Source: Asanoa ferruginea
GTDB taxonomy: Bacteria; Actinomycetota; Actinomycetes; Mycobacteriales; Micromonosporaceae
Length of the DNA: 64,000 nucleotides
Direction of reading: 5' to 3'
Assembly: GCF_003387075.1 (NCBI RefSeq)
Contig: NZ_QUMQ01000001.1
Coordinates: 3,844,001-3,908,000 of the forward strand
Below are positions 20,571-53,091 of this stretch, piece after piece. A model generated the notes under the pieces. That model saw only the letters and a program-made list of their open reading frames with translations. It ran no database searches and was not told where the DNA came from. Positions within the stretch are counted from its first letter, which is position 1; the number at the start of each line of letters is the position of its first letter. Both the position numbers and the translations under genes were made by a program.

Positions 20571-23500
20571 TCGCCCTGGTCGCTCTGATGCTCACCGCCC
20601 GGCGCTTTCAGGCGGCGCTGGTCGTGCTGCTCAGCGCGCTCGCGACGGCCGCCGCGGTGGCCGGCCCGGCCTACACCGCCGCCGTCGACCGGGCGGCGAC
20701 CGTCGCCGAGGTGGCCAACACGCCCCCGGCCGCCCGCACCGTCGCCCTCACCGGCGCGATCGACAGCACCCAGCGCGACCGGTTCGACGCGCTCGCCAAC
20801 GACCTGGCCGACCTGCCCCGGTTCAACACCGTGCTGACCGCCGTCCTGCCGGTGCTCGGCCTGGAGCCCGCGAGCGGCGAGATCTCCTGGATGACATTCC
20901 GCGACAGCGCCTGCGAGCACCTGGAGATCGTCGCGGGCCGCTGCCTGATGGCCGCCGGCGAGGTAATCGTCGGCGAGTCGACCGCGCACCGCCTCGGCGT
21001 GGCACCCGGCCAGTCGGTGACCCTGAGCTGGGCCACCTACGACGACGCCACCCGCAGATGGGTGTCCTCCGGGCGGCCGGCGCCGATCACGATCGTCGGC
21101 GTCTACCGGCCGCGCGACCCGGCCGAGCCCTACTGGGGGCGCAGCGGCTATTTCTCGCCGACCGCGCCCGACGCCAACCAGGAGCCGGTCTTCACCGGCC
21201 GGCCGACCGTCGACGGGCTGGAGCACGAGTCCGACAACCGGTCCGTTGAGGCGATCCCCGGTCCCGGTGCGCTCGACGCCGACCAGTTGCCCGCGCTCGG
21301 TGTCGCGCTCGACAACCTGCGCGACAAGCTCGGCGACGACGAGGAGTCGACCGGTTTCGCGACCCTCAACGACGAACTGCCCAAACTCTTCGACCGGGTA
21401 CGTCGCTCCGACGCGCTGACCCGCGAACTGGTGCCGCTGGCCGGCCTGCCGCTGATCGGCCTGTGCTGGCTGGTCATCTTTGTCGCGGTGGCCGGCGCGA
21501 CCGCCGCGCGCCGGCACGAGCAGGCGCTGATCGCATTGCGCGGCGCGCCCCGGATCGGCCGGTTCTGGCTGGCCGCCGGGGAGAGCGTGATCGCGATCGC
21601 GGTCGGCGCCCCGATCGGCTACCTGGTCGGGACGCTGGCCACCCGGGCGGCCGCCAACGCGCGCTTCGGCCCGGTCCCGATCTTCGAACTCGCTCCGGCG
21701 CCGGGGGTGCTGCTGGCCGCCTTGGTCGCGGTCGCCGGCGCGGTGGCCGTCGGCCTGCTCGCGCTGCGCAGCGACCTGGCCAGCCCGGTGGTCGACCTGC
21801 TCCGCCGGGTGCCGCCGCGCGGCGCCGCCTGGCGCACCGTCGCGATCGACGCGGGCGCGGTCGTGCTCGCCGTCGTGGCCGCCGTGCAGCTGCGCGCATT
21901 CGACGGCCAACTGCTCGGCCTGGGTCTGCTGGTGCCGGCGCTGATCGGGCTGGCGATCGCGGTGCTGGCCGGTCGCCTGCTGGTCCCGCTGGCCGCCCGG
22001 CTCGGCCGCCGGGCCATCCGCAGCGGCCGGCTCGGGTTGGCGCTCGGTGCGCTCCAGGTCGCCCGCCGGCCCGGCAGCCAACGGCTGTTCGTGCTGCTGG
22101 CCGTCGCGGTCGCGGTGCTCGGTTTCGCGACCACCGCCGTCGACGTGGCCGGTCGGGCCCGGGCCGATCGGGCCGCGGTGGAGACCGGCGCCCTCCGCAC
22201 GCTGACCGTCGGCACGGTCGACGCCGGCGCGCTGCGGTCGGCCGTGCGGGCCGTCGACCCGGACGGCCGCTTCGCCATGGCGGCCGGCACGCGATCCTCC
22301 GCGGAGGGCCCGCCGGTGGTGTTCGCCGACACCGCGGCATTGCCCGCCGTGGCACTCTGGCGTCCCGAATACGGCGACCGCTCGGCGGCGGAGATCGCCG
22401 CCGCGCTGCGCCCGCCAGCCGACGAGCCGGTCGTGGTCAAGGGCACCGAACTGGCGCTGACCGTCAACTACGAGTCGCGGACGCCGACCGGCACCGAGCT
22501 GCGGCTGACCGCGCTGCTTCGCCCGCTGGCGGGTGGTTCACCGGTGCGGGCCGGCACCGCCAAAATCGCAACCGGCCGGCATACCTGGACCATGGCCAGC
22601 CAGATCTGCGTCGTTGGCTGCCGGCTTGCCGGGATCGAGGCGGTCTACGCCGCGGCCGGCGGCACGGCGGCGGACATCTCGATCATTTCGTTGGCCGAAC
22701 GGCCCGACCAGTCGGCGCCGTTCACCGACGTGGTGCCGGCGTTCGGCACCGACAAGTGGCGCGCCAACAACGACGCGACGCTGACCGCACAGGACGGCGG
22801 CGTGCACGTCGTCGTGCCGGGTGCGGTCGTGCAGCCGCGGCCGACCGTGATCGTGCCGACGGGCACACCCACCGAAGTGCCGGTGCTCAGTGGCGGGCCG
22901 CCGCCCAAGTCGGGCGAGGCCGAGGGCGTCGACGGCAACGTGGTCGCGATCCGGCCGGTCGGCGAGGGCCGCGCACTGCCCCGGATCGGCACCGGACTGC
23001 TGATGGACATCGGGTACGCCGAACGCATCGCCACCGGCAGCACCGACCTCACCACGGCCGAGGTCTGGCTCGGCCCGGCGGCCCCGGCCGACATCGAGCA
23101 GCGGCTGACCGATCAGGGCCTGATCGTGACCGGCCGCGACTCGGTCACGGCCGCCGCCGACCGGCTCGACCAGCGCGGCCCGGCCCTCGCGGTGTGGTTC
23201 CACCTGCTGGCCGGCGGGGTCGCGGTGCTGCTCGCCGCGTGCGGCATGTGGCTGATGGCCGCCGTCGACCGCCGGCGCAACCTCGACGACCTGATCGCTT
23301 TGCGGCGGCAGGGGCTCGCGGCGCGTACCGGTGGAAGCTGGGTTCTCTGGGCTTATCTGCCTGTCGCCATCGCGGCCGTGCTCGCCGGTTTGGTCGCGGC
23401 CGTCATCGCCTGGGCGGTGGTCGGCAAGTATGTCCCATATTTCGTTGATGACGACTTCGCCCTGGCCCCGCCGGCCTGGCCACGGCCCCTCGCCATCGTC

Positions 23501-23578
23501 CTTCCGGCGGTCGCGGTCGCCCTGCTGTTCACCACCGTGGCGGCCGGTCTGCGTCGAGCGCTCCGCGTGCGAGACTAG
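20567..23578 (+). CDS. Giant FtsX-like ABC permease, second cassette, subunit 2
   Basis: A 1003-residue permease with the same plan: N-terminal helix (about 14-33), external domain containing CEHLEIVAGRCLMAAGEVIV and the RDPAEPYWG motif shared with the other copies, central helices from LAGLPLIGLCWLVIFVAVAG, second external domain, and C-terminal helices ending near residue 995. GTG 20567 overlaps the preceding stop. The recurring Cys-x(6-9)-Cys pair in the first external domain, present in all four permeases, could form a disulfide outside the cell. The thioredoxin-like gene follows 6 nt after the stop, possibly as part of the same transcript. Confidence 0.86.
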   Translation: MIALVALMLTARRFQAALVVLLSALATAAAVAGPAYTAAVDRAATVAEVANTPPAARTVALTGAIDSTQRDRFDALANDLADLPRFNTVLTAVLPVLGLEPASGEISWMTFRDSACEHLEIVAGRCLMAAGEVIVGESTAHRLGVAPGQSVTLSWATYDDATRRWVSSGRPAPITIVGVYRPRDPAEPYWGRSGYFSPTAPDANQEPVFTGRPTVDGLEHESDNRSVEAIPGPGALDADQLPALGVALDNLRDKLGDDEESTGFATLNDELPKLFDRVRRSDALTRELVPLAGLPLIGLCWLVIFVAVAGATAARRHEQALIALRGAPRIGRFWLAAGESVIAIAVGAPIGYLVGTLATRAAANARFGPVPIFELAPAPGVLLAALVAVAGAVAVGLLALRSDLASPVVDLLRRVPPRGAAWRTVAIDAGAVVLAVVAAVQLRAFDGQLLGLGLLVPALIGLAIAVLAGRLLVPLAARLGRRAIRSGRLGLALGALQVARRPGSQRLFVLLAVAVAVLGFATTAVDVAGRARADRAAVETGALRTLTVGTVDAGALRSAVRAVDPDGRFAMAAGTRSSAEGPPVVFADTAALPAVALWRPEYGDRSAAEIAAALRPPADEPVVVKGTELALTVNYESRTPTGTELRLTALLRPLAGGSPVRAGTAKIATGRHTWTMASQICVVGCRLAGIEAVYAAAGGTAADISIISLAERPDQSAPFTDVVPAFGTDKWRANNDATLTAQDGGVHVVVPGAVVQPRPTVIVPTGTPTEVPVLSGGPPPKSGEAEGVDGNVVAIRPVGEGRALPRIGTGLLMDIGYAERIATGSTDLTTAEVWLGPAAPADIEQRLTDQGLIVTGRDSVTAAADRLDQRGPALAVWFHLLAGGVAVLLAACGMWLMAAVDRRRNLDDLIALRRQGLAARTGGSWVLWAYLPVAIAAVLAGLVAAVIAWAVVGKYVPYFVDDDFALAPPAWPRPLAIVLPAVAVALLFTTVAAGLRRALRVRD

Positions 23579-23584
23579 GGAACC

Positions 23585-24520
23585 ATGAGCGAACCACGGA
23601 CGTCTCCGTCGATCTTCACTCGCGGCGCGGTCGATCTCGGCGCGCTGCGCCCTTCACCATCTCCGTCCCCGGCCGCCGCTGGCGGCGGCGCGGGCGGTCA
23701 ATCAGCGCCCACCGAGCAACCGGCACCGGGTGGCTTCGCGCCCGGCGGCAGCGTCGCCGTGATCGACGTGACCGAGGCGACGTTCCAGGCCGAGGTCCTC
23801 GAACGCTCGCTGACCACGCCCGTGGTCATCGACTTCTGGGCCGAGTGGTGCGAGCCGTGCAAGCAACTCTCCCCGATGCTGGAGAAGCTGGCGATCGAAG
23901 GCGGCGGCGCGTGGGTGCTCGCCAAGATCGACGTTGACGCCAACCAGCGCCTCGCCCAGATGTTCCGGGTCCAGGGCATCCCGATGGTCTTCGCGGTGGT
24001 CGGCGGCCAGCCGGTCGACGCCTTCTCCGGCGTCGTGCCCGAGTCGCAGCTCCGCCAGTGGATCGGCGCGGTGCTCAAGGCCGGCGGCGTCGAGGTCGAG
24101 GCACCGGCTGACCCCCGCCTCGAGAGCGCCGACGACGCCCTGATGGTCGGCGACCTCGACGCGGCCGAGGCCGCCTACAAGAAGATCCTCTTCGAGGCAC
24201 CGGCCGACGCGGCCGCCGAAGCCGGCCTGGCCCAGGTCGGTCTCTACCGCCGGGTGCAGGGCGTCGACGCGGCCAAGGTCATGTCGGACGCGGCCGCGGC
24301 CCCTGATGACCTCGACCTCCAGGAGCTGGCGGCCGACATCGAGATCCTCGGCGGCGAGGCCGAGCGGGCCTACAAGCGCCTGATCGACCTGGTGAGACGC
24401 AGCGCCGGCGACGACAAGGAGCGGGTCCGCAAGCACCTGGTGTCGCTGTTCACGATCGCCGGTCCCGACGACCCGGCGGTCTCCGCGGCCCGCCGGGCCC
24501 TGGCCAGCGCGCTGTTCTGA
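23585..24520 (+). CDS. Thioredoxin/TPR protein (YbbN/CnoX-like co-chaperone)
   Basis: A 311-residue cytoplasmic protein. A Pro/Ala/Gly-rich N-terminal 55 residues precede a thioredoxin fold (about 58-170) with WCEPCK, redox Cys89 and Cys92. This is followed by a C-terminal helical region of degenerate TPRs (LESADDALMVGDLDAAEAAY, ERAYKRLIDLVRR). The order matches E. coli CnoX/YbbN, a chaperedoxin that hands clients to GroEL. Unlike E. coli CnoX, which lacks a normal CxxC, this protein keeps both cysteines and could be redox active. ATG 23585 follows the permease stop by 6 nt; the next gene starts 4 nt after its stop, so co-transcription is likely. Confidence 0.9.
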   Translation: MSEPRTSPSIFTRGAVDLGALRPSPSPSPAAAGGGAGGQSAPTEQPAPGGFAPGGSVAVIDVTEATFQAEVLERSLTTPVVIDFWAEWCEPCKQLSPMLEKLAIEGGGAWVLAKIDVDANQRLAQMFRVQGIPMVFAVVGGQPVDAFSGVVPESQLRQWIGAVLKAGGVEVEAPADPRLESADDALMVGDLDAAEAAYKKILFEAPADAAAEAGLAQVGLYRRVQGVDAAKVMSDAAAAPDDLDLQELAADIEILGGEAERAYKRLIDLVRRSAGDDKERVRKHLVSLFTIAGPDDPAVSAARRALASALF

Positions 24521-24524
24521 GACG

Positions 24525-26846
24525 GTGAGCGCCGTGCGCCGGATCGCACTCCTGGACGCGCCGTCGAACCTGGGCCTACGACCGCCCACGCCGACGTCAA
24601 CTCCCGGCTGCGCCAAGGCGCCCGGCGCCCTCCGCGACCAGGGCCTGCTGGGCCGGCTCGCGGCCCGCGACGCAGGCTGCCTCACCCCACCCCGCTACGA
24701 CCCGGGCGACTGGCGCCCGGGCGACGGCGTCTGCCACGCCGACGCGATCGCGGCCTACTCGGTGGCCCTGGCCGGCCGCATCGGCGCGATCATCGACGCA
24801 GACGAGTTCCCGGTCGTCCTCGGCGGTGACTGCTCGATCCTGCTCGGCTCCGCGCTGGCGATGCACCGCCTGGGTGAGGCGGTCGGCGGCCGCATCGGCC
24901 TGGTCTTCGTCGACGGCCACTCCGACTTCCGCCACCCCGGCAACGCGTCCTATGTGGGCGCCGCGGCCGGCGAGGACCTGGCGCTGGCAACGGGTCGCGG
25001 CCAAGCCGACCTGGCGGCGATCGAGGGCCGAAGACCCTACTTCCGCGACATCGACGTGGTAGTGCTCGGCATCCGCGCCCAGGACGAATACCGGCTGGAC
25101 CTACAGGCCGCCGGCATCGTGACGCGCGCGGTGCCCGCCCTACGCGCCGAGGGCGCGGCACGCACCGCGCAGTGGGCCCGCGACCAACTCGCCGACTGCG
25201 CCGGCTACTGGGTGCACGTAGACGTAGACGTGCTCGACCCCGCGGTCCTGCCCGCGGTCGACGCGCCCGACCCGGGCGGGATCGCCTTCCCGGAATTGGA
25301 ACTGTTGATCGCCGGCCTGGTCGACACCCCACACTGCCTGGGCATCGAACTCACGGTCTTCGACCCGGACTACGACCCCGACGGCACCTACGCGGCCGAA
25401 ATCGTCAGCACCGTCGTCGCGGGCCTGGCCCCGATCCGCGCGGCCGCCTCAGCCCGGGGCCGGTCAGCGTTGGCTTTCACCCAGCGCCGCCGCCCCGCCC
25501 CCGACGGCGACCGCTTCCACCCACCGGCGATCCCGGAGCCCCCGTCAAGGCCGGCCGCGCCGGCCGAGACGACGTCGGTCTGGGACTCAGTGCCGGCCGA
25601 CCTGCCCGCCGCGGCCTGGGAGCCGGTTCCGGAGGCCGAGGCCGTGCCCGCGTGGGAGCCGGTGGCGGAGGCCGCGTCTGACTGGGAGCCGCCCGCCGAC
25701 GCCGCCGCTTGGGAAAGCGAGGCGTCCCCGACATCCGACCCGGAACCAACCGCGGCGCCGGCTGTCGAGCCACCTGCGACGCCGGCCGCCGAGTCGACGG
25801 CGGCTGAGGCCGGCGAGGACGATCAGGAGTCCGCCGCCGGGGGCAAGAGGCCGGCAATCGGGCGGCAGCGGCGATCCGCCTTCGACGTGCTTTCCGGCGA
25901 TGCCGGAAACGCCCGCAAGCGGCGGTCCGCGGCCGACATCCTGGCCGCTCCGCTCGGCGCCGCCGTTGACGCGGCCGGCCCCGGCCGCCTACGCCGCGCC
26001 CCGGATGGCGATGCGGTGACGAGTGACGTGCGTCCGGGTGGGTTGCGGCGTTCCGCGGACGGTGACGCGGGCACGAGCGACACCCGCCCGGGCGGCTTGC
26101 GCCGTGCCACCGCTGGCGACGCTGCGACGGATCCGCGTCCCGGCGGCCTCCGCCGTTCCGCGGCGAGCGACACGGCGACCACCGACGCCCGTCCGGGCGG
26201 TCTGCGTCGTTCGGCGGACGCCGAGGCCGCTTTGGCCGATATCCGGCGAGATGATTTGCCGCGTTCTGCGGAAGACGATGAGGCGCCCGAAGACCGCCCC
26301 GGCGATCTCCGCCGGTCGAGCGCCGTCGACGCTGCCACCGCCGACGAGGCGCCGGATGACGACGCGGCGGCGGTCGACCGCCCGGGCGGGTTGCGCCGCC
26401 CTTCGGTCGGCGACGCCGCTTCAGCGGATGTGCGACCGGGTGGGCTACGCCGGGCGGTGGACGGTGATGCTGTCACGACCGGCCCTGGCCCTGGCCGGCT
26501 GCGCCGGGCCAATGACGGCGACGCGGCTACCGCCGACGTGCGACCGGGCGGGCTGCGCCGCACCCCGCCTGACGACGAGCCAGCCGCCGACGAGGCGCCG
26601 GATGACGACGCGGCGGCGGTCGACCGCCCGGGCGGGTTGCGCCGCCCTTCGGTCGGCGACGCCGCTTCAGCGGATGTGCGACCGGGTGGGCTACGCCGGG
26701 CGGTGGACGGTGATGCTGTCACGACCGGCCCCGGCCCCGGCCGGCTGCGCCGCGCCAATGACGGCGACGCGGCTACCGCCGACGTGCGACAAGGCGGGCT
26801 GCGCCGCACACCGCCTGACGACGAGCCAGCCGCCGACGAGGCCTGA
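24525..26846 (+). CDS. Arginase/agmatinase-family enzyme fused to a long PGGLRR-repeat tail
   Basis: A 773-residue protein. Residues 1-310 are an arginase (ureohydrolase) fold with metal ligands Asp130, His132 and Asp134 (DGHSD), Asp233 and Asp235 (HVDVDVLDP) and Glu275. The first ligand, normally His in GGDHS, is Cys103 (GGDCS), a variant found in some arginase-family proteins of uncertain substrate. Residues 330-485 are low-complexity, Pro/Ala/Glu-rich with WEPV-like repeats and two RRSAxDxL motifs. Residues 486-773 hold fifteen repeats of about 18 residues (consensus RPGGLRRSxDGDAxTxDV). The start is GTG 24525; GTG 24534 is an alternative. The TGA at 26844 appears to be a late interruption: an in-frame, stop-free continuation resumes the repeat and ends at 27065. 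Confidence 0.85.
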   Translation: MSAVRRIALLDAPSNLGLRPPTPTSTPGCAKAPGALRDQGLLGRLAARDAGCLTPPRYDPGDWRPGDGVCHADAIAAYSVALAGRIGAIIDADEFPVVLGGDCSILLGSALAMHRLGEAVGGRIGLVFVDGHSDFRHPGNASYVGAAAGEDLALATGRGQADLAAIEGRRPYFRDIDVVVLGIRAQDEYRLDLQAAGIVTRAVPALRAEGAARTAQWARDQLADCAGYWVHVDVDVLDPAVLPAVDAPDPGGIAFPELELLIAGLVDTPHCLGIELTVFDPDYDPDGTYAAEIVSTVVAGLAPIRAAASARGRSALAFTQRRRPAPDGDRFHPPAIPEPPSRPAAPAETTSVWDSVPADLPAAAWEPVPEAEAVPAWEPVAEAASDWEPPADAAAWESEASPTSDPEPTAAPAVEPPATPAAESTAAEAGEDDQESAAGGKRPAIGRQRRSAFDVLSGDAGNARKRRSAADILAAPLGAAVDAAGPGRLRRAPDGDAVTSDVRPGGLRRSADGDAGTSDTRPGGLRRATAGDAATDPRPGGLRRSAASDTATTDARPGGLRRSADAEAALADIRRDDLPRSAEDDEAPEDRPGDLRRSSAVDAATADEAPDDDAAAVDRPGGLRRPSVGDAASADVRPGGLRRAVDGDAVTTGPGPGRLRRANDGDAATADVRPGGLRRTPPDDEPAADEAPDDDAAAVDRPGGLRRPSVGDAASADVRPGGLRRAVDGDAVTTGPGPGRLRRANDGDAATADVRQGGLRRTPPDDEPAADEA
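25980..26843 (+). repeat. Protein-coding repeat array, fifteen PGGLRR units
   Basis: The repeats begin at PGRLRRAPDGDA (codon 486) and run to the stop codon. Most units are 54 bp; two are 84 bp because of an acidic insertion (DEAPDDDAAAVDR). Core variants are PGGLRR, PGRLRR, PGDLRR, QGGLRR and one strongly decayed unit, RDDLPR. The alternation of basic LRR and acidic DGDA/DD patches suggests a disordered tail with regularly spaced charges. Confidence 0.9.
26345..26836 (+). repeat. Two tandem 246-bp copies, about 98% identical
   Basis: Copy 1 (26345-26590) and copy 2 (26591-26836) differ at 6 of 246 positions by direct comparison. The period is 82 codons, so the frame is kept. Older units are far more diverged, so this block duplicated recently, by unequal crossing-over or slippage. 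A third copy begins at 26837 but breaks off after 7 bases. Confidence 0.92.
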
Positions 26847-27065
26847 ACGCCGTTTGCGCGGGGCAGCCGAGGGTGGGTCTCTTTCCGCGTACGTGTTCTT
26901 TCATGTGGCTACATAAAAGAACATGTACGCCCGCAGAGACACCTGCCCGGTCCCCGGCCAGGTGAGGGACGCCGTCCTAGGGGCGGCGACGCCGCTTCAG
27001 CGGACGTGCGACCGGGCGGGCTGCGTCGCGCGCCGCCGACCGGTGACCGGTCGGCGGCCGACTAG
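26847..27065 (+). pseudogene. In-frame severed 3' end of the repeat gene
   Basis: After the TGA at 26844-26846 the same frame stays open to a TAG at 27063-27065. From 26985 it encodes GDAASADVRPGGLRRAPPTG and ends DRSAAD, an ordinary further repeat and a plausible natural C-terminus. Between them lie about 140 bp unrelated to the repeat, including a long hairpin. The best reading is that an insertion or replacement introduced the stop codon and cut off the last repeat. A sequence error or stop readthrough is possible but less likely. Confidence 0.6.
26877..26940. repeat. 64-nt hairpin element in the broken repeat region
   Basis: Bases 26877-26906 pair with 26911-26940. Paired blocks are GTCTCT/AGAGAC, GCGTAC/GTACGC, TGTTCTTT/AAAGAACA and ATGT/ACAT, with about four mismatches, two G-U pairs and a GGCT loop. 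Its composition is notably AT-richer than the flanks. It could be a palindromic mobile element or a bidirectional terminator for the convergent penicillin-binding protein gene. Confidence 0.8.
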
Positions 27066-27074
27066 GGGTGATCG

Positions 27075-29003
27075 TTAGTGCAGGGCGCGGAGGAAGCGTT
27101 CGGCGGCTGGGACGGCTGTTTCGCCGCTGCCGCCGCCGTTTTCGACGAAGACTGCGAACGCTACGTCGCCCTGCCAGCCGACGAACCAGGCGTGCGTGTG
27201 TGCTGGGTTGTCGTCGAACTCCGCCGTGCCGGTCTTGCCGGACACGGCGCCGCCGGGGACGTCCTTCAGGGCCGTCGCCGTCCCGGACGTGACCACCTGG
27301 CGCATCATCGAACGCAGCGGGTCTAGGCTCTCGGCCTTCAGCGCCGCGCCGGGCTTTGCCGGCTTGTCGGCGATCACCGAGGGCGGCACTACCGAGCCCT
27401 TCGCTACCGCTGCCGTCGCCGAGGCCATGGCCAGCGGGGAGACCAGTGTGGTGCCCTGGCCGAAGGCCGCCGCGGCGCGTTCGGCGTCGGAGCCGCCGGT
27501 CGAGACCTTGCCGCTGAAAGCGTCGACGCCCAGGTCCCAGGTGCCCTCCAGGCCCAGCGAACGTCCCGCTGCCGCCAGGCCGTCGGGGCCCAGCGACGGG
27601 GCCAGCGAAGCGAAGGCCGTGTTGCAGGACTTCGCGAAGTCGACCTGGAACGGGACCTTGCCGAGCGCGAAGCTTTCCGAGTTCTTGAACGAGCGGCCGT
27701 CGACCGTGAAGTTCTGCGGGCAGTTGACCACCGTCGACGAGGTGACCTTGCCGCCGTCGAGCAGGCCCAGCGCGCTCACCATCTTGAACGTCGAACCCGG
27801 TGGGACCTGGGCGGTGAATGCCAGGTTTTCACCCGAGCCGCCGTCGGGGCCGTTGGCCGCCGCCAGCACCGCGCCGTCGCTGACCCGGACCGCGACCAGC
27901 GCCGAGCGCTGTTTCACTCCGGCCAGGGCCGTGTCGGCGGCGTTCTGGGTGCGCACGTCGAGCGTCGTCTTGACCGGAGTGCCGGGCTTCGGCTCGGCGC
28001 GGAACAGCTCCTCGCCGTCGTTGACTTCGCCGTCCGGTGCCTTCTGGGAGATTACGACGGAGACGCCGGGCGTACCCCTCAACTGCTTGTCGAACGCACC
28101 CTGGATGCCGCCGTGGCCGACCAGGTCGCCCTCCGCGACCGCGTCGGGGTTTTTGTCGATGTCTTCCTTCAGGGCCGGGTCGGCCGAGCCGAGCAGGGCG
28201 CGGGCGAACGCGCGGGTCGGTGCCAGGTCGCGCTTCTCCGCCCGGAACCGGGTGCCCTCCAGCGGTTGGATCTTCGACCGAATCTGATCGTAGGCATCCT
28301 TGCGCAGGGTGACTACCTCGAGGAACTGCTCGGGGTTCTCGGCCGAGGTGATCTTCTTGGGCAGGTCCTTGAGGTCGATCGGCGGCAACGCCGGGCGCAC
28401 CGACTTGAAAGCCTTGTCCAGAGCGGCAGTGATCCCGGCCGGGTCGTCGACGCCCGCCGGCTCCACGCCGACCACCACGACGTCGCGCGGCTCGACGATG
28501 GGCTTGCCGGCGCCGTCGAGGACGCCGGCCCGGTCGGGCCGCTGGCGGCGCAGGCCCAGTTGGTCGCCGCTCTTCAGCTTGGCGTTGACCAGCGCCGGCT
28601 CCCAGATCACCGACCAGACGTCGTCTTTGCCCTGGGTCAGCCGGACCGTCGACGGATAGGTCCAGTGGGTGCCGCCGGGCAGGGTCCAGTCGAGATTGAT
28701 CTTCGCGGTGGCGGTCTTCTCGACCTCTTCGACGGAACCGTCGCGGTGCACCGCGGGCGACGGCAGCTCGCCGGAGAGATCTTTGAGCGACTTCGCCACG
28801 TCGGTGGCGGCGATCTTCGCGCCGGTGGGTTCGACGAAGGCGATCTGGGCGAGATCACCACGCTGCCAGCCGGTGAGGAAGGCGTCGACGGCTTCGTCGG
28901 GGCCGGAGTCGCCGGAGCAACCGGCGAGTCCGGCGGCCAGGAGCGCGAGGCCCACCAGCGCCGCGCTGGGGCGTTTTTTCATCATCGGGTATGACCGACG
29001 CAT
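27075..29003 (-). CDS. Lipoprotein penicillin-binding protein (class B transpeptidase, MecA-like)
   Basis: A 642-residue D,D-transpeptidase that crosslinks peptidoglycan outside the membrane. The N-terminus MRRSYPMMKKRPSAALVG and the following LALLAAGLAGC form a lipoprotein signal with lipobox LAGC, so lipid anchoring replaces the usual class B membrane helix. An NTF2-like MecA_N domain (AVDAFLTGWQRGDL onward) and a dimerisation region precede the transpeptidase domain with the three catalytic motifs: STFK (SxxK), SCN (SxN) and KTGT. ATG 29003 was chosen for its AAGGA site 9 nt upstream; ATG 28985 or 28982 are alternatives. MecA-like PBPs in other groups have low beta-lactam affinity; whether this one does cannot be told from sequence. 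Confidence 0.9.
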   Translation of the reverse strand: MRRSYPMMKKRPSAALVGLALLAAGLAGCSGDSGPDEAVDAFLTGWQRGDLAQIAFVEPTGAKIAATDVAKSLKDLSGELPSPAVHRDGSVEEVEKTATAKINLDWTLPGGTHWTYPSTVRLTQGKDDVWSVIWEPALVNAKLKSGDQLGLRRQRPDRAGVLDGAGKPIVEPRDVVVVGVEPAGVDDPAGITAALDKAFKSVRPALPPIDLKDLPKKITSAENPEQFLEVVTLRKDAYDQIRSKIQPLEGTRFRAEKRDLAPTRAFARALLGSADPALKEDIDKNPDAVAEGDLVGHGGIQGAFDKQLRGTPGVSVVISQKAPDGEVNDGEELFRAEPKPGTPVKTTLDVRTQNAADTALAGVKQRSALVAVRVSDGAVLAAANGPDGGSGENLAFTAQVPPGSTFKMVSALGLLDGGKVTSSTVVNCPQNFTVDGRSFKNSESFALGKVPFQVDFAKSCNTAFASLAPSLGPDGLAAAGRSLGLEGTWDLGVDAFSGKVSTGGSDAERAAAAFGQGTTLVSPLAMASATAAVAKGSVVPPSVIADKPAKPGAALKAESLDPLRSMMRQVVTSGTATALKDVPGGAVSGKTGTAEFDDNPAHTHAWFVGWQGDVAFAVFVENGGGSGETAVPAAERFLRALH

Positions 29004-44267: not shown

Positions 44268-44730
44268 ATGTCGACGCCCCGCGACGCCACCCCGGAGGCC
44301 AGGCGCTGAAGACAAAGATGCGGACTCGGGTCCGCGGTGGGCGCGACCGTCGCTCCCGCCAGGCTCACCCTTCGTCGTCGGTCGCGGTCTCAAGCCCAAC
44401 GACCTGGTCCAGAAACCGACCGCGCCCACGTCCGTGGACGCAACCCCATCGACCGGCCGCGCGGTCGGACATCCGCCGAACCGGTCCCGTCCGGGCCGCC
44501 AGTCGGCGCTGAGGTTGAGCAGCCAGGTGCTGCCGTCGTCGTCGTGGAACAGCGCCGCGCCGCGCTCGCCGGCTCCGGCGAGGTTTGACGCAGGCCGCGG
44601 GGACCGCGACCGCCGCAAGAACCGGAGCGCGCCGCGGCGCGAGCGCCGCACCACCGCCGCGTCGAACGTGCCGCCGCCGAGGTCGTAGCCCACCCTAGGC
44701 GCGGCGCAGGTGGCGATGCCGACCTACGTT
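44268..44730. other. Stretch without an intact gene
   Basis: About 460 bp between the serine hydrolase and the apbE-side repeats. No intact gene is recognisable on either strand; long frames here are GC-driven. It holds the Hsp70-like fragment at its right end and presumably the serine hydrolase promoter, which was not located. Confidence 0.6.
44600..44693 (-). pseudogene. Fragment resembling the Hsp70 phosphate-binding motif
   Basis: Reading down from 44693, the frame encodes GYDLGGGTFDAAVVRRSRRG. This matches the second phosphate motif of Hsp70-type ATPases (DLGGGTFD) and the equivalent segment VHDFGAGTFDASVVVRRSDG of the intact gene at 51247-53091. Similarity fades afterwards, and no upstream or downstream Hsp70 sequence is recognisable in any frame. 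It is probably a decayed remnant; the recognisable part is only about 20 residues. Confidence 0.4.
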
Positions 44731-44897
44731 TCGGTCTCCGGTGGCGGTGTCGACCTACGTTCGGCCGCCGGTGGCGGTGTCGATCTACGTTCGGCCGCCG
44801 GTGGCGGTGCCGACCTACGTTCGGCCGCCGGTGGCGGTGTCGATCTACGTTCGGCCGCCGGTGGGGGAGCCGACCTAGGTTTCGGCCGCCGGTGGCC
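44731..44897. repeat. 30-bp tandem array, about 5.5 copies, at the apbE 3' end
   Basis: Units start at 44731, 44761, 44791, 44821 and 44851, with a partial sixth at 44881. Each contains GGCCGCCGGTGGCGGTG (last full unit GGCCGCCGGTGGGGGAG) and CGACCTACGT or a close variant. The apbE stop codon (44875-44877) lies inside the array and the last codons of apbE are unit sequence. Each unit can form a small CCGCC-GGT-GGCGG hairpin. On the plus strand the array reads as GGGVDLRSAA repeats, probably not translated. Confidence 0.88.
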
Positions 44898-45987
44898 AGG
44901 TGCCGAAGACGCGGACCGAGCGTTCGTGGCCGACCAGGCGGGCCGGTGCCGAGAGCGCCTGTAGCCACGACGGCGCCAGTTCCTCGCGGATCAGGGCGGC
45001 GTTGGCGACCGTGGTGGCGCGTAGGGCCGAGAACGCGGCGACCGACGCCGACCGCCAGGCGTGTCGCACGGGCCGGCCGGTCTCCGGGTCGACGATGTGC
45101 TGGAGCAACTCCTCGGCCGTGTCCCAGCGCCGGTGGTGGCTGCTCGCCGTCGACACCGCAGCCCCGCCCGGTAGCCCGACATGTGCGGCCGGGTCGACCG
45201 GGCCGTCTCGCACCAGCAGCGGCCAGCCGTTGCGCGGCGACGGGCCGGCGGTCGCGACGTCGCCGCCGATCGAGACCAGGCAGCCGACGTCGAGCGTGGC
45301 CGCGATCAGCGCGGAGCAACGGTCGACCGCCCGCGCCCGCATCGTGACCGACAGGTCGAGCGTCACGCCCTCCGGGATGGTCAGGTGCTGGCCGTCGAGG
45401 CGCACCTCCTCCCAGCTCGGCGGGCGGTAGACCGCCAACTGTCCAACCTGGACGTGCTGGGTGGCGCCGTCGGTCACCAGCGCGCCGAAGTCCGGGTCGT
45501 GGCCGAGGCTGGTCATAATCGCGCCGACGGTCGGGTCGACGTCGCCCTCGGTGTCGCGGGCGGCCGAGAGCGCGACCGCGACGAGTTCGGCCAGCAGCGG
45601 GCTGACCTCACTGCCGTCGCCGGCCGAGGCGAGCTCTGAGTCGGCGCGCAGCCGGCTCGCGGCCACGTCGATCGCGGCCAGCTCACCGCGGACCAGTTCC
45701 TCGGCCCGCCGCAACGTGCTCGCGTCGGTCACCGACACCCGGACCGGCTCGTCCCAGAGCGTCCATTGTGCCGTGTCGACAGTGGATGGCAGAGCATCGG
45801 CGACGGTGAGCATCGGCCATTGGGTGAAGGCCGGCGGCGGGGCCGGTGGCGCTTCCGGAGGCGCGGCCCCGGGCGGGGGGCCCTGCCCGGAACCGCGCGC
45901 GGACCCCGACGCGGGCACCTGGCGCCGGCCGGAGCTTCCGAAGACACTGGCAACAAGAGCCACAACGAACACGCCTGCGAATACCAT
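44875..45987 (-). CDS. ApbE-like FAD:protein FMN transferase, possibly altered active site
   Basis: A 370-residue protein with an N-terminal membrane helix (MVFAGVFVVALVASVFG), a Pro/Ala/Gly-rich linker and an ApbE domain. Family landmarks are ASRLRADSEL, DVDPTVGAIMTSLGHDPDF, VSIGGDVATAGP and HIVDPETGRP. ApbE (Ftp) enzymes attach FMN to threonine of extracytoplasmic redox proteins. The usual LDLGATAKA segment, which contacts FAD, reads LDLSVTMRARAVD here, losing the Gly and replacing Lys by Arg, so activity is uncertain. GGGGG precedes ATG 45987. No flavinylation target is seen nearby. Confidence 0.8.
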   Translation of the reverse strand: MVFAGVFVVALVASVFGSSGRRQVPASGSARGSGQGPPPGAAPPEAPPAPPPAFTQWPMLTVADALPSTVDTAQWTLWDEPVRVSVTDASTLRRAEELVRGELAAIDVAASRLRADSELASAGDGSEVSPLLAELVAVALSAARDTEGDVDPTVGAIMTSLGHDPDFGALVTDGATQHVQVGQLAVYRPPSWEEVRLDGQHLTIPEGVTLDLSVTMRARAVDRCSALIAATLDVGCLVSIGGDVATAGPSPRNGWPLLVRDGPVDPAAHVGLPGGAAVSTASSHHRRWDTAEELLQHIVDPETGRPVRHAWRSASVAAFSALRATTVANAALIREELAPSWLQALSAPARLVGHERSVRVFGTWPPAAET

Positions 45988-51246: not shown

Positions 51247-53091
51247 TCACCTAAGCCCGTCGAGCCAGCTCCGGATGCCGTCGACGATGTCGGTGTAAGA
51301 GTCGCCGGTCGCGTAGTGGAACGCCACGACCGCGGCGACCGCCGGGCTCGCCACCAGCAGAACGAGCATCAACAGCCCGCGCAGGAAGCGGCCGAAGCCG
51401 CCTCCCCGGCGACGGGGGGCCGGGCGGGCCGGCTTGGCTTCCCACACCGGCGGGCGCTCGTCGCGGCGGGCCGGCACCGGGTCGGGGTAGACCTGCGGCT
51501 CGTCGTAGCCGGACAGCGACCGCAGGTCGGAGACCAGGGCGGGCTCGGCCAGCGTGTCGCGGCCGAACCGGGACGGGCGGGTGGCCTTGGCCGCCTTGAC
51601 CGGCACCGCGGCCCGGCCCGGCGGGTAGGCCGCGGGCGGCGGGAGCGGTGCGGTCGGCGGCGGGCGGTGCCCGTTGCGGGACGACGAGACAGCGGCCTTG
51701 GCAACGAAGGGTGCCGCCGCCGGTCCGCTGGCCGGCGTCGCCGCCGACGCACCGGAAGGCGCACCGGACGTGGCGCCCGAAGGCGCACCGGGCTGCGCGC
51801 TCGAAGGCGCACCGGGCTGCGCGCCCGAAGGCGCACCGGACTGCGCGCCCGAGGGCGCGCCAGGTGCGACCGGCCCGGCGGGCGACACGGGTGCGATCTT
51901 GACCGGCTGCGGTATCGCGCCGTCGGCCGGCTCGACGACCTTCGGGAACGTCCCGGTCACCGGCACCGCGCCGGCCGCGCTGGCCAGCATCGCGGTCGAC
52001 GCCAGCACGCTGCCCTCGGCCACCACGAGCTCGGGCTGCTCGATCACCACCGGCGGCTCGCCGAGCTCGCGGTGCAGCATCGTCGCCAGCAGCGGGATGC
52101 GGCTGGACCCGCCGACCAGGAAGACACCGGCCCGGTTGCCGGCCGGCAGCGCCGCGGCCTCGATCACCGACTTGGTCACCTGCACCGTGCGCGCCAGGAT
52201 CGGCGTCGCCACCCGCTCCAATTCGGCGCGGGTCAGGTGCGCTTCGATGTCGCAGAGAGGGATGACCAGGTCGGCCGAAGGGCTGCGGGACAACCGCTCT
52301 TTGGCCACGCGTACGTCGTCCCAGAGTTGCCGCTTGGCCCGCCGGTCTTCGACCGTCGCCGGTGCCCGCAGCCGCTCCCAGGCCTCCGGATGGGCCGGCG
52401 CGTAGGTGGCCGCCAGGTGCTCGACCAAGGCCGCGTCGACGTCGAGGCCACCCAGGTCGGCGCGGCCGTCGACGGCGAGCACCTCGAAGCCGTCGGACCG
52501 GCGCACCACCACGCTCGCGTCGAACGTGCCGGCGCCGAAGTCGTGCACGACCACGGCGGAGCCGATCGGCACGTCGCGGCCGAGCACCTCGGCGAAGTAG
52601 GTGGCCGCGGCGACCGGCTCGGCGACCAGTCGGCCATTGCCCAGCCCGGCCTTGGCGGCGGCGCCGGAGAGCAGCTCGCGGCGGGTCGCACCCCAGGTCG
52701 CGGGGCAGGTCAGGGTCAGCGTCGGCGGGGTGTCGGCGGTGACCTCGCCGGTGGTCAGGTCACCGATCGTGCGGCGCCACTCTTCGGCGAGCCGGGACAG
52801 CACCGCGGCGATCAGGTCGGCCAGCGGGATGTCGCGCTCGCCGAGCAGCACGCTGCCGTCGTCGACGTGGCGCTTGGGGTTGGGCTCGAAGCGGGCCGGG
52901 TCGAGCCGGGAGCTGTGCACCGCGTCGCGGCCGACCACCAGCGGCGCGTCGCCCGGCGGCGCGTAGACCGCCGAGGGCAGCAGGGGCGAGCCGTCGACCA
53001 GCAGCGGGCGCACCCGACCGTCGGGCCAGCGCACCACGGCCACCGTGTGCGAGGTCCCGAAATCGACCCCCAGCGCGGCCCCCGGTGACAT
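51247..53091 (-). CDS. Hsp70-like ATPase with Pro/Ala-rich linker and C-terminal membrane anchor
   Basis: A 614-residue protein. Residues 1-370 form an actin/Hsp70 ATPase domain with phosphate motif 1 GVDFGTSHTVAVVRW, connect and phosphate 2 motif VHDFGAGTFDASVVV, and adenosine motif VFLVGGSSRIPLLATML. The Hsp70 peptide-binding domain is absent. Instead there is a Pro/Ala linker with repeated GAPSGAQ units (about 410-450), an arginine-rich stretch (PRRRGGGFGRFLRG) and one membrane helix (LLMLVLLVASPAVAAVVAF), followed by about 20 external residues. The membrane-anchored ATPase would thus face the cytoplasm. Such proteins are known in actinobacteria but their clients are not. A TAGGCT box lies 7 nt before ATG 53091. 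Confidence 0.88.
   Translation of the reverse strand: MSPGAALGVDFGTSHTVAVVRWPDGRVRPLLVDGSPLLPSAVYAPPGDAPLVVGRDAVHSSRLDPARFEPNPKRHVDDGSVLLGERDIPLADLIAAVLSRLAEEWRRTIGDLTTGEVTADTPPTLTLTCPATWGATRRELLSGAAAKAGLGNGRLVAEPVAAATYFAEVLGRDVPIGSAVVVHDFGAGTFDASVVVRRSDGFEVLAVDGRADLGGLDVDAALVEHLAATYAPAHPEAWERLRAPATVEDRRAKRQLWDDVRVAKERLSRSPSADLVIPLCDIEAHLTRAELERVATPILARTVQVTKSVIEAAALPAGNRAGVFLVGGSSRIPLLATMLHRELGEPPVVIEQPELVVAEGSVLASTAMLASAAGAVPVTGTFPKVVEPADGAIPQPVKIAPVSPAGPVAPGAPSGAQSGAPSGAQPGAPSSAQPGAPSGATSGAPSGASAATPASGPAAAPFVAKAAVSSSRNGHRPPPTAPLPPPAAYPPGRAAVPVKAAKATRPSRFGRDTLAEPALVSDLRSLSGYDEPQVYPDPVPARRDERPPVWEAKPARPAPRRRGGGFGRFLRGLLMLVLLVASPAVAAVVAFHYATGDSYTDIVDGIRSWLDGLR

What the first reader, a model, noticed from the sequence alone, without database searches (positions are those of the whole stretch)
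24525..26846. Arginase-family enzyme fused to fifteen PGGLRR-type repeats
A complete ureohydrolase domain (residues 1-310) continues into about 150 residues of WEPV-type low complexity and then fifteen units of about 18 residues with a PGGLRR core and acidic DGDA spacers. I know of no described ureohydrolase with such a tail. The regular basic/acidic spacing could make a scaffold, a condensate-forming tail or a polyamine-, RNA- or membrane-interacting region. It lies in an apparent transcript with a thioredoxin/TPR chaperone.
Basis: partly seen in the sequence, partly recalled or inferred. Interest (0 to 1): 0.72.

Follow-up and report, generated by a model that had tools for sequence, protein, structure and literature searches.

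The report
Arginase-like protein with amplified motif tail
A soil actinobacterium carries an arginase-like protein whose long floppy tail repeats, about fifteen times, a short motif that most close relatives keep only once or a few times, which suggests that the tail is a docking arm whose contact points evolution has multiplied.

Summary
Window 24525-26846 is one 773-aa frame: an Arginase-family domain (residues 22-297), an Ala/Pro/Glu-rich linker, and 14 clear plus one degenerate PGGLRR-type unit, mostly 18 residues apart. The nearest relatives are Asanoa.

The tail is coding: DNA-level comparison keeps frame and shows third-position excess in the three better-aligned of six Asanoa pairs. 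It is not unique. The domain occurs in 120 of 121 genomes searched from the window's family. Of 39 sampled genera, 7 have no real tail and 22 have tails of 40-1227 aa. Of 75 complete close relatives, 60 carry PGxLR[RP] in the tail (0.4 expected by shuffling); Asanoa and four other lineages multiplied it.

The domain is not a typical arginase: a metal His is Cys, and the proton-shuttle His and guanidinium Glu are missing. A CnoX/YbbN-like thioredoxin-TPR gene lies upstream in 80 of 80 relatives.

Best reading: a disordered docking tail bearing a short linear motif, amplified for multivalency. Partner and binding are inferred, not shown. New variant of a known kind.

The parts
23585..24520 (+). 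Upstream gene: thioredoxin-TPR protein of CnoX/YbbN type, active site WCEPC
   Evidence: PF00085 and TPR_20; best PDB match YbbN 3.5e-25; upstream in 80 of 80 relatives
24525..26846 (+). The gene: arginase-fold domain plus tail, 773 aa, GTG start 4 nt after the upstream stop
24525..25433 (+). Arginase-fold domain, residues 1-303
   Evidence: PF00491 at residues 22-297; strong conservation up to about residue 303
24822..24836 (+). GGDCS motif, residues 100-104: Cys103 in place of the metal His of GGDHS
   Evidence: GGDCS in 81 of 81 proteins; Cys in 52 of 52 wider representatives
24912..24926 (+). DGHSD motif, residues 130-134 (metal ligands)
   Evidence: 81 of 81; His132 is Asn in 1 of 48 family representatives and Ser in 4 of 4 outside relatives
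25221..25241 (+). DVDVLDP motif, residues 233-239 (metal ligands)
   Evidence: 79 of 81, the other 2 DLDVLDP
25434..25850 (+). Ala/Pro/Glu-rich linker with WEPV-type pieces, disordered by charge-hydropathy (residues 311-440 tested)
25851..25997 (+). Box conserved in 4 of 4 Asanoa proteins read: PxIGRQRRS..KRRSAADIL..GPGRLRR
25980..26843 (+). Array: 14 clear and one degenerate PGGLRR-type unit with acidic spacers
26334..26825 (+). 246-bp tandem duplication within the array, 9 differences
26984..27064 (+). Orphan unit beyond the stop, same frame, ends in TAG
   Evidence: found again as a separate match (E 1.4e-4)

Best explanation
The gene encodes a core protein of this family: a metal-binding, arginase-fold domain of a non-arginase subfamily, encoded directly after a CnoX-like thioredoxin-TPR protein. 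In part of the family the domain gained a long disordered C-terminal arm. The arm works as a tether that carries a short linear motif, PGxLR[RP] in an acidic and Pro-rich setting, for docking a partner protein. Most close relatives carry one or two motifs; Asanoa, and independently a few other genera, multiplied it, turning a one-site arm into a multivalent one (about 15 sites per chain here; arginase-fold proteins usually form trimers or hexamers, recalled, so an assembly could carry some 45-90). Shown: the frame is coding, the tail is an add-on, the motif outlives the rest of the tail, and it was amplified repeatedly. Inferred: disorder in the cell, binding, valency, and the partner (the neighbouring TPR protein is the first candidate to test, on position alone).
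For: Coding: window against L011, 633 of 633 aligned tail bases in frame, mismatches .27/.23/.49 by codon position; L009 .27/.23/.45 with 95% in frame. Add-on: 7 of 39 genera and the outside relatives read end at the domain, and pocket residues are nearly the same with and without tail. Motif: 60 of 75 complete relatives, 0.4 expected; among the 400 commonest 8-mers tested it is the most widely kept in 60 Micromonospora-type tails (45 of 60; next other element 35 of 60), while its third codon positions vary freely (1.49 bits, 44 genes). Amplification to three or more copies needs at least five changes on the tree: Asanoa, L158, L170, L177, L162/L191. Specific to this gene: profile and array searches found no other convincing protein. 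Sequence-based disorder for linker, box and repeats. Precedent: RNase E tail microdomains.
Against: No partner is known and none was tested; no structure was obtained. 15 of 75 complete close relatives lack the motif in frame, and only 10 of 39 sampled genera (Asanoa not counted) show it. Tail comparisons with L010 give no third-position excess or a reverse one. The neighbour gene is present with and without a tail, so it gives no special support as the partner. Motif presence and the neighbour's active site are unrelated (Fisher p 0.31, 74 loci).
Confidence: 0.55

Rival explanations
1. Near-neutral tail growth: stop-codon loss and slippage in GC-rich DNA lengthen a tolerated disordered tail, and repeat copies rise and fall by recombination with little or no function.
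For: Tail length varies from 0 to 1227 residues; positions 1 and 2 change several-fold faster than in the domain; a recent 246-bp duplication; repeat arrays of other sequence also occur in relatives' tails.
Against: The motif is kept in 60 of 75 complete relatives against 0.4 expected, with free third positions, and the same motif was amplified in at least five lineages.
Confidence: 0.22
2. Bulk electrostatics: alternating +3 cores and acidic spacers make a polyampholyte that self-associates, forms condensates or binds RNA, polyphosphate or membrane, without a specific partner.
For: Strict charge alternation (cores +41 over 98 residues, spacers -48 over 179); low hydropathy.
Against: In 57 relatives with PGxLR[RP] outside Asanoa the stretch around the last motif is only mildly acidic (-1.0 over 12 residues before, -2.5 over 20 after), and the Pro-Gly-x-Leu part, which carries no charge, is kept too.
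Confidence: 0.12
3. Peptidyl-arginine chemistry: the domain acts on arginines in peptides, as the peptide arginase OspR does, and the Arg-pair tail is its own substrate, pseudosubstrate or client bait.
For: OspR also lacks the proton-shuttle His and the guanidinium Glu (passages of PMC10028609); residues for the free amino acid's carboxylate look lost here (roles recalled); the array offers many Leu-Arg-Arg sites.
Against: OspR keeps all six Asp/His metal ligands while this family has Cys103; the pocket is nearly the same in tail-less members, so the tail cannot be the general substrate; no activity is known.
Confidence: 0.05
4. Cargo-loading tail for a protein shell such as an encapsulin.
For: Enzyme plus disordered tail with short motif resembles such cargo (recalled; PMC8346489 seen only as a listing).
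Against: No family-1 shell (PF04454) in this genome, with controls that rang in 3 genomes. PF19307 gave nothing either, but no control rang, so that is inconclusive.
Confidence: 0.03

Closest known systems
RNase E noncatalytic region with microdomains (PMC4435900; abstract and passages seen)
   Same: Conserved enzyme domain plus long, fast-evolving, biased and repeat-rich disordered C-terminal region with embedded short conserved motifs that bind partners; an Ala/Glu/Pro/Val-rich part there, Ala/Pro/Glu-rich linker here.
   Different: Unrelated enzyme; partners are known there and unknown here; here one motif is amplified to about 15 copies.
Canonical arginase (TIGR01229; PDB 2ef4/2eiv and others)
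   Same: Fold family, three metal-motif regions, Pfam PF00491.
   Different: Cys for one metal His, Ala for the proton-shuttle His, Val for the guanidinium Glu, score 81.6 against a cut-off of 227.6, long tail.
Peptide arginase OspR (PMC10028609; passages seen)
   Same: Atypical arginase-fold enzyme without the shuttle His and the Glu.
   Different: OspR keeps all six metal ligands and acts on a RiPP precursor; sequence relation to this domain was not tested.
DcsB, N-hydroxy-arginine hydrolase (PDB 6lug, weak match)
   Same: Arginase-fold member; a Cys at the metal site is recalled, not checked.
   Different: Part of cycloserine synthesis (recalled), no such tail known to me; match E 2.3e-7 only. 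No paper on it was found in the library.
CnoX/YbbN chaperedoxins (PMC6282202, passages seen), for the neighbour gene
   Same: Thioredoxin plus TPR architecture; WCxPC active site as in the reductase-type members.
   Different: Chaperone function not tested; in 28 of 79 relatives the active site is replaced by GAAG[FY]P[ED]S.
Borg tandem-repeat proteins (PMC9879509; abstract and passages seen)
   Same: In-frame tandem repeats create disordered regions with motif-like units and evolve fast.
   Different: Archaeal extrachromosomal elements with perfect amino-acid repeats; here the units have diverged at synonymous sites and derive from a conserved motif.

Membership tests
Arginase superfamily (PF00491) | Pfam model above its gathering score | tested here: met
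   94.8 bits against 22
Arginase proper (TIGR01229) | equivalog model above cut-off | tested here: not met
   78.2 bits (whole protein) and 81.6 (domain) against 227.6
Arginase proper (TIGR01229) | six metal ligands in GGDHS, DAHxD, SxDxDxxDP | tested here: not met
   GGDCS in 81 of 81; the other ligands kept in DGHSD and DxDVLDP; motif definition from PMC10028609 passages
Arginase proper (TIGR01229) | proton-shuttle His and guanidinium-binding Glu | tested here: not met
   Ala148 and Val278 in the alignments to PDB arginases; over 52 representatives Ala or Gly, and Val or Ile
Arginase proper (TIGR01229) | urea release from free L-arginine | not testable with these tools
   needs an assay
Agmatinase / formimidoylglutamase | NCBIfam models above cut-off | tested here: not met
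   35.5 against 174.3, 35.7 against 302, 59.5 against 229.15
Peptide arginase (OspR type) | activity on peptidyl arginine; sequence kinship to OspR | not tested
   only the shared loss of two catalytic residues was compared with the paper's text
CnoX/YbbN (neighbour gene) | thioredoxin domain followed by a YbbN-type TPR | tested here: met
   PF00085 residues 59-160 and TPR_20 residues 225-311; YbbN best PDB match over residues 59-165
CnoX/YbbN (neighbour gene) | holdase that works with GroEL/DnaK | not testable with these tools
   needs an assay
Encapsulin cargo | a shell protein in the genome | tested here: inconclusive
   PF04454 absent with working controls; PF19307 absent but no control rang
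Enzyme with motif-bearing disordered tail (RNase E plan) | long biased tail predicted disordered, with a conserved short motif | tested here: met
   composition and charge-hydropathy only; motif in 60 of 75 complete relatives
Enzyme with motif-bearing disordered tail (RNase E plan) | motif binds a partner | not testable with these tools
   no partner known; structure service took no jobs

The most novel reading that the evidence does not exclude
A near-universal module of this family pairs a chaperedoxin with an atypical arginase-fold protein that acts on peptidyl arginine (Arg to Orn); its own Arg-pair motif tail, amplified in Asanoa, is a built-in substrate, pseudosubstrate or bait array for client proteins.
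Probability: 0.05. Interest if true: 0.88.

Novelty: new variant of a known kind. Interest (0 to 1): 0.5.

Why it matters
It offers a bacterial case in which stages of docking-tail evolution survive side by side in one family: no tail, tail without motif, tail with one motif, tail with an amplified motif, all on a strongly conserved domain. That makes it possible to test whether the valency of a short linear motif is selected in bacteria. It also points to a gene pair, a chaperedoxin and an atypical arginase-fold protein, present in nearly all genomes searched of a family known for antibiotic producers, for which I found no description in the library searched.

Tried and rejected
Noncoding tail: rejected by frame keeping and third-position excess in three of six Asanoa pairs (window/L009, window/L011, L009/L011). 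Pairs with L010 do not help: window/L010 .40/.45/.48 with 78% in frame, L009/L010 .42/.48/.38 with 82%, L010/L011 .42/.45/.39 with 61%; I read these as misalignment of a much changed tail.

Motif as a shared sorting signal: the array as a protein query found only itself, the orphan unit and one hit at E 0.02 in the own genome. The box profile in 13 genomes at E up to 10 (150 scored candidates each, of 228 to 1001) found this gene strongly in the six Asanoa-genus genomes; the best other hit there was E 0.015, in an unrelated enzyme frame (L124). In the other seven genomes the best hits were a flavin-monooxygenase-like frame in G095 (L116, E 0.005, and L125; judged by eye) and this very gene in G153 (E 0.02).

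Link between motif and the neighbour's active site: none (39/9 against 24/2 over 74 complete loci, L080 left out as unclear, the four alternate-frame loci counted as having the motif; p 0.31).

RNA element: one sub-threshold Rfam match, taken as chance. Consensus promoters and terminators: none found in 23300-27200. Encapsulin: see rivals.

Literature: ten searches. No paper held holds PGGLRR, GPGLLRR or PGLLRR. DcsB papers were not found.

Structure prediction and fold search: not run, as the service accepted no jobs.

Full report
What is there. The frame 24525-26846 codes for 773 residues. Residues 22-297 match the Arginase family well above cut-off. After about residue 303 comes a linker rich in Ala, Pro and Glu, then a box kept in 4 of 4 Asanoa proteins read (PxIGRQRRS...KRRSAADIL...GPGRLRR), then the array. 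I count 13 PG[GRD]LRR cores, one QGGLRR and, by eye, one degenerate unit, mostly 18 residues apart; cores carry +41 net charge over 98 residues and spacers -48 over 179. Shuffled tails give 0.027 cores on average and never more than 2 in 1000. A 246-bp tandem duplication with 9 differences lies at 26334-26825, so copy number is still moving.

Is the tail translated? Aligned as DNA, without reference to protein, the tails of the window and L011 lie in one frame over 633 of 633 aligned bases, with mismatch rates .27.23 and .49 at the three codon positions; with L009 .27.23.45 and 95% in frame; L009 with L011 .30.29.43 and 96%. The domain gives .06.02.33 (L011) and .04.00.24 (L009). The three pairs with L010 align poorly (61-82% in frame) and show little or reversed third-position excess; I take that as misalignment, but they do not support the claim (all). 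So the tail is coding and, overall, weakly constrained.

How special is it? The nearest relatives are Asanoa species (domain 93-95% identical). Of 231 relatives found, the tool kept the best 80; their titles name Micromonosporaceae genera, and all 80 frames run at least 24 residues past my domain mark (five are cut by contig ends). A profile found the domain in 120 of 121 genomes of the window's family, 107 of 107 of good quality, and in 12 of 148 genomes drawn from its class at E up to 1e-20, two of them from the same family. In the nearest outside relatives read (L099-L102) the frame ends at the end of the domain (L103 was not read out). Among one or two loci from each of 39 genera, 7 have at most 10 residues beyond the domain, 22 have a tail of 40 or more in at least one locus, and the longest is 1227 residues (L186 and L194 were dropped, and the tails of L132 and L148 are cut by the locus end). 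On a quick tree of 72 domains (18 of 69 inner branches starred, 25 open, long branches in the outgroup) most tail-less rows branch near the base (L181 and L195 do not). The tail is therefore an add-on.

The motif. In 60 of 75 complete relatives the tail holds at least one PGxLR[RP], against 0.4 expected from shuffling each tail (61 of 80 with the five cut frames). Four further loci have an AGPG[LR]LRR box in another frame: in L018 and L039 it lies inside the span of the tail frame, in L082 just past the stop, probably frameshifts or sequencing errors; in L036 it lies 2.3 kb past the domain with four stops between, so its belonging is unsure. The setting is similar across genera: EPVGPPASAGPGLLRR in many Micromonospora, RPLGSAPLLDSEPLPATRPGMLRPRPP in Actinoplanes, APLG..D..GPGRLRR in Asanoa. 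In 60 Micromonospora-type tails it is the most widely kept of the 400 commonest 8-mers tested (45 of 60 within two mismatches); another element, around APRRGNGR, reaches 35 of 60. Third codon positions vary freely (1.49 bits over 44 genes, 41 distinct DNA versions; the first two positions are fixed by how I chose the units), so the motif is old rather than recent. Three or more copies need at least five changes on the tree: Asanoa; L158 (3); L177 (4); L162 and L191 (3); L170 (6, counting PG[GR]LAR). In the four Asanoa genes read the count of PGxLR[RP] is 5, 5, 7 and 13. Against this, only 10 of the 39 genera (Asanoa not among them) show the motif in the loci read. A profile of the motif box found this gene strongly in the six Asanoa-genus genomes and no other protein below E 0.015 there.

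The domain is not a typical arginase. GGDHS reads GGDCS in 81 of 81 proteins, and Cys is kept in 52 of 52 wider representatives, four of them from outside the family. Against bacterial arginases in the PDB the places of the proton-shuttle His and the guanidinium Glu hold Ala148 and Val278, and places that by recalled numbering bind the substrate carboxylate hold Arg136, Val144 and Ala146. These are nearly the same in tail-less and tailed members (Gly for Ala148 in 3 of 31 tailed; Ile for Val278 in 2 of 10 short-tailed). His132 is Asn in 1 of 48 family representatives and Ser in 4 of 4 outside relatives. Scores lie far below the arginase, agmatinase and formimidoylglutamase cut-offs. Passages on OspR show that a working arginase-fold enzyme can lack both the shuttle His and the Glu, so these losses do not prove loss of activity; they argue against free arginine as substrate.

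The neighbour. A thioredoxin-TPR gene of CnoX/YbbN type ends 4 bases before the start codon. tblastn finds it upstream in 80 of 80 relatives (four matches partial) and on the same strand in 47 of 49 family loci, with or without a tail, but in 0 of 11 outside loci read, which reach about 1.5 kb beyond the match. In 28 of 79 relatives its WCxxC is replaced by GAAG[FY]P[ED]S. So the pair is older than the tail, and redox activity is not what holds it together in part of the family.

How it most likely works. The steady element of the tail is the short motif, not length or bulk charge, so I take the tail as a flexible tether with docking motifs and the array as a multivalent form. Shown: coding, add-on history, motif conservation, repeated amplification. 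Inferred: disorder (composition only), binding, partner, effect of valency. RNase E is the closest precedent for the plan (passages).

Verdict. It is a lineage-specific amplification within a family-wide tailed protein, not an isolated fusion. The setting may be the more surprising part: a nearly universal pair of a chaperedoxin-like and an atypical arginase-fold protein in this family, for which I found no description.

Noticed in passing
window 26889-26928; L002-L008: A near-perfect palindrome (TGTTCTTTNATGT-NNNN-ACATNAAAGAACA core) just after the gene, with at least 15 further places in the genome (40 of 675 candidates scored); folds strongly, z -4.7. It stands between this gene and a penicillin-binding-protein gene on the other strand.
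   Followed up: partly
window 26984-27064: One more repeat unit, in frame with the gene but beyond its stop and the palindrome; by eye absent from the nearest relative L009.
   Followed up: partly
upstream genes in L012, L016, L078, L088 and others: In 28 of 79 relatives the CnoX-like neighbour has lost its WCxxC active site (GAAG[FY]P[ED]S), yet stays next to the arginase-fold gene.
   Followed up: partly
L099-L102: Outside-family relatives of the domain have Ser in place of a metal His, so they may be metal-poor or inactive forms.
   Followed up: no
L018, L036, L039, L082: Motif box in another frame than the gene's tail frame: frameshifts or sequencing errors in GC-rich tails.
   Followed up: partly
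window 44705-44906 and 51748-51858: Other tandem arrays: a 30-bp unit repeated 6.6 times and a 24-bp unit repeated 4.6 times.
   Followed up: no
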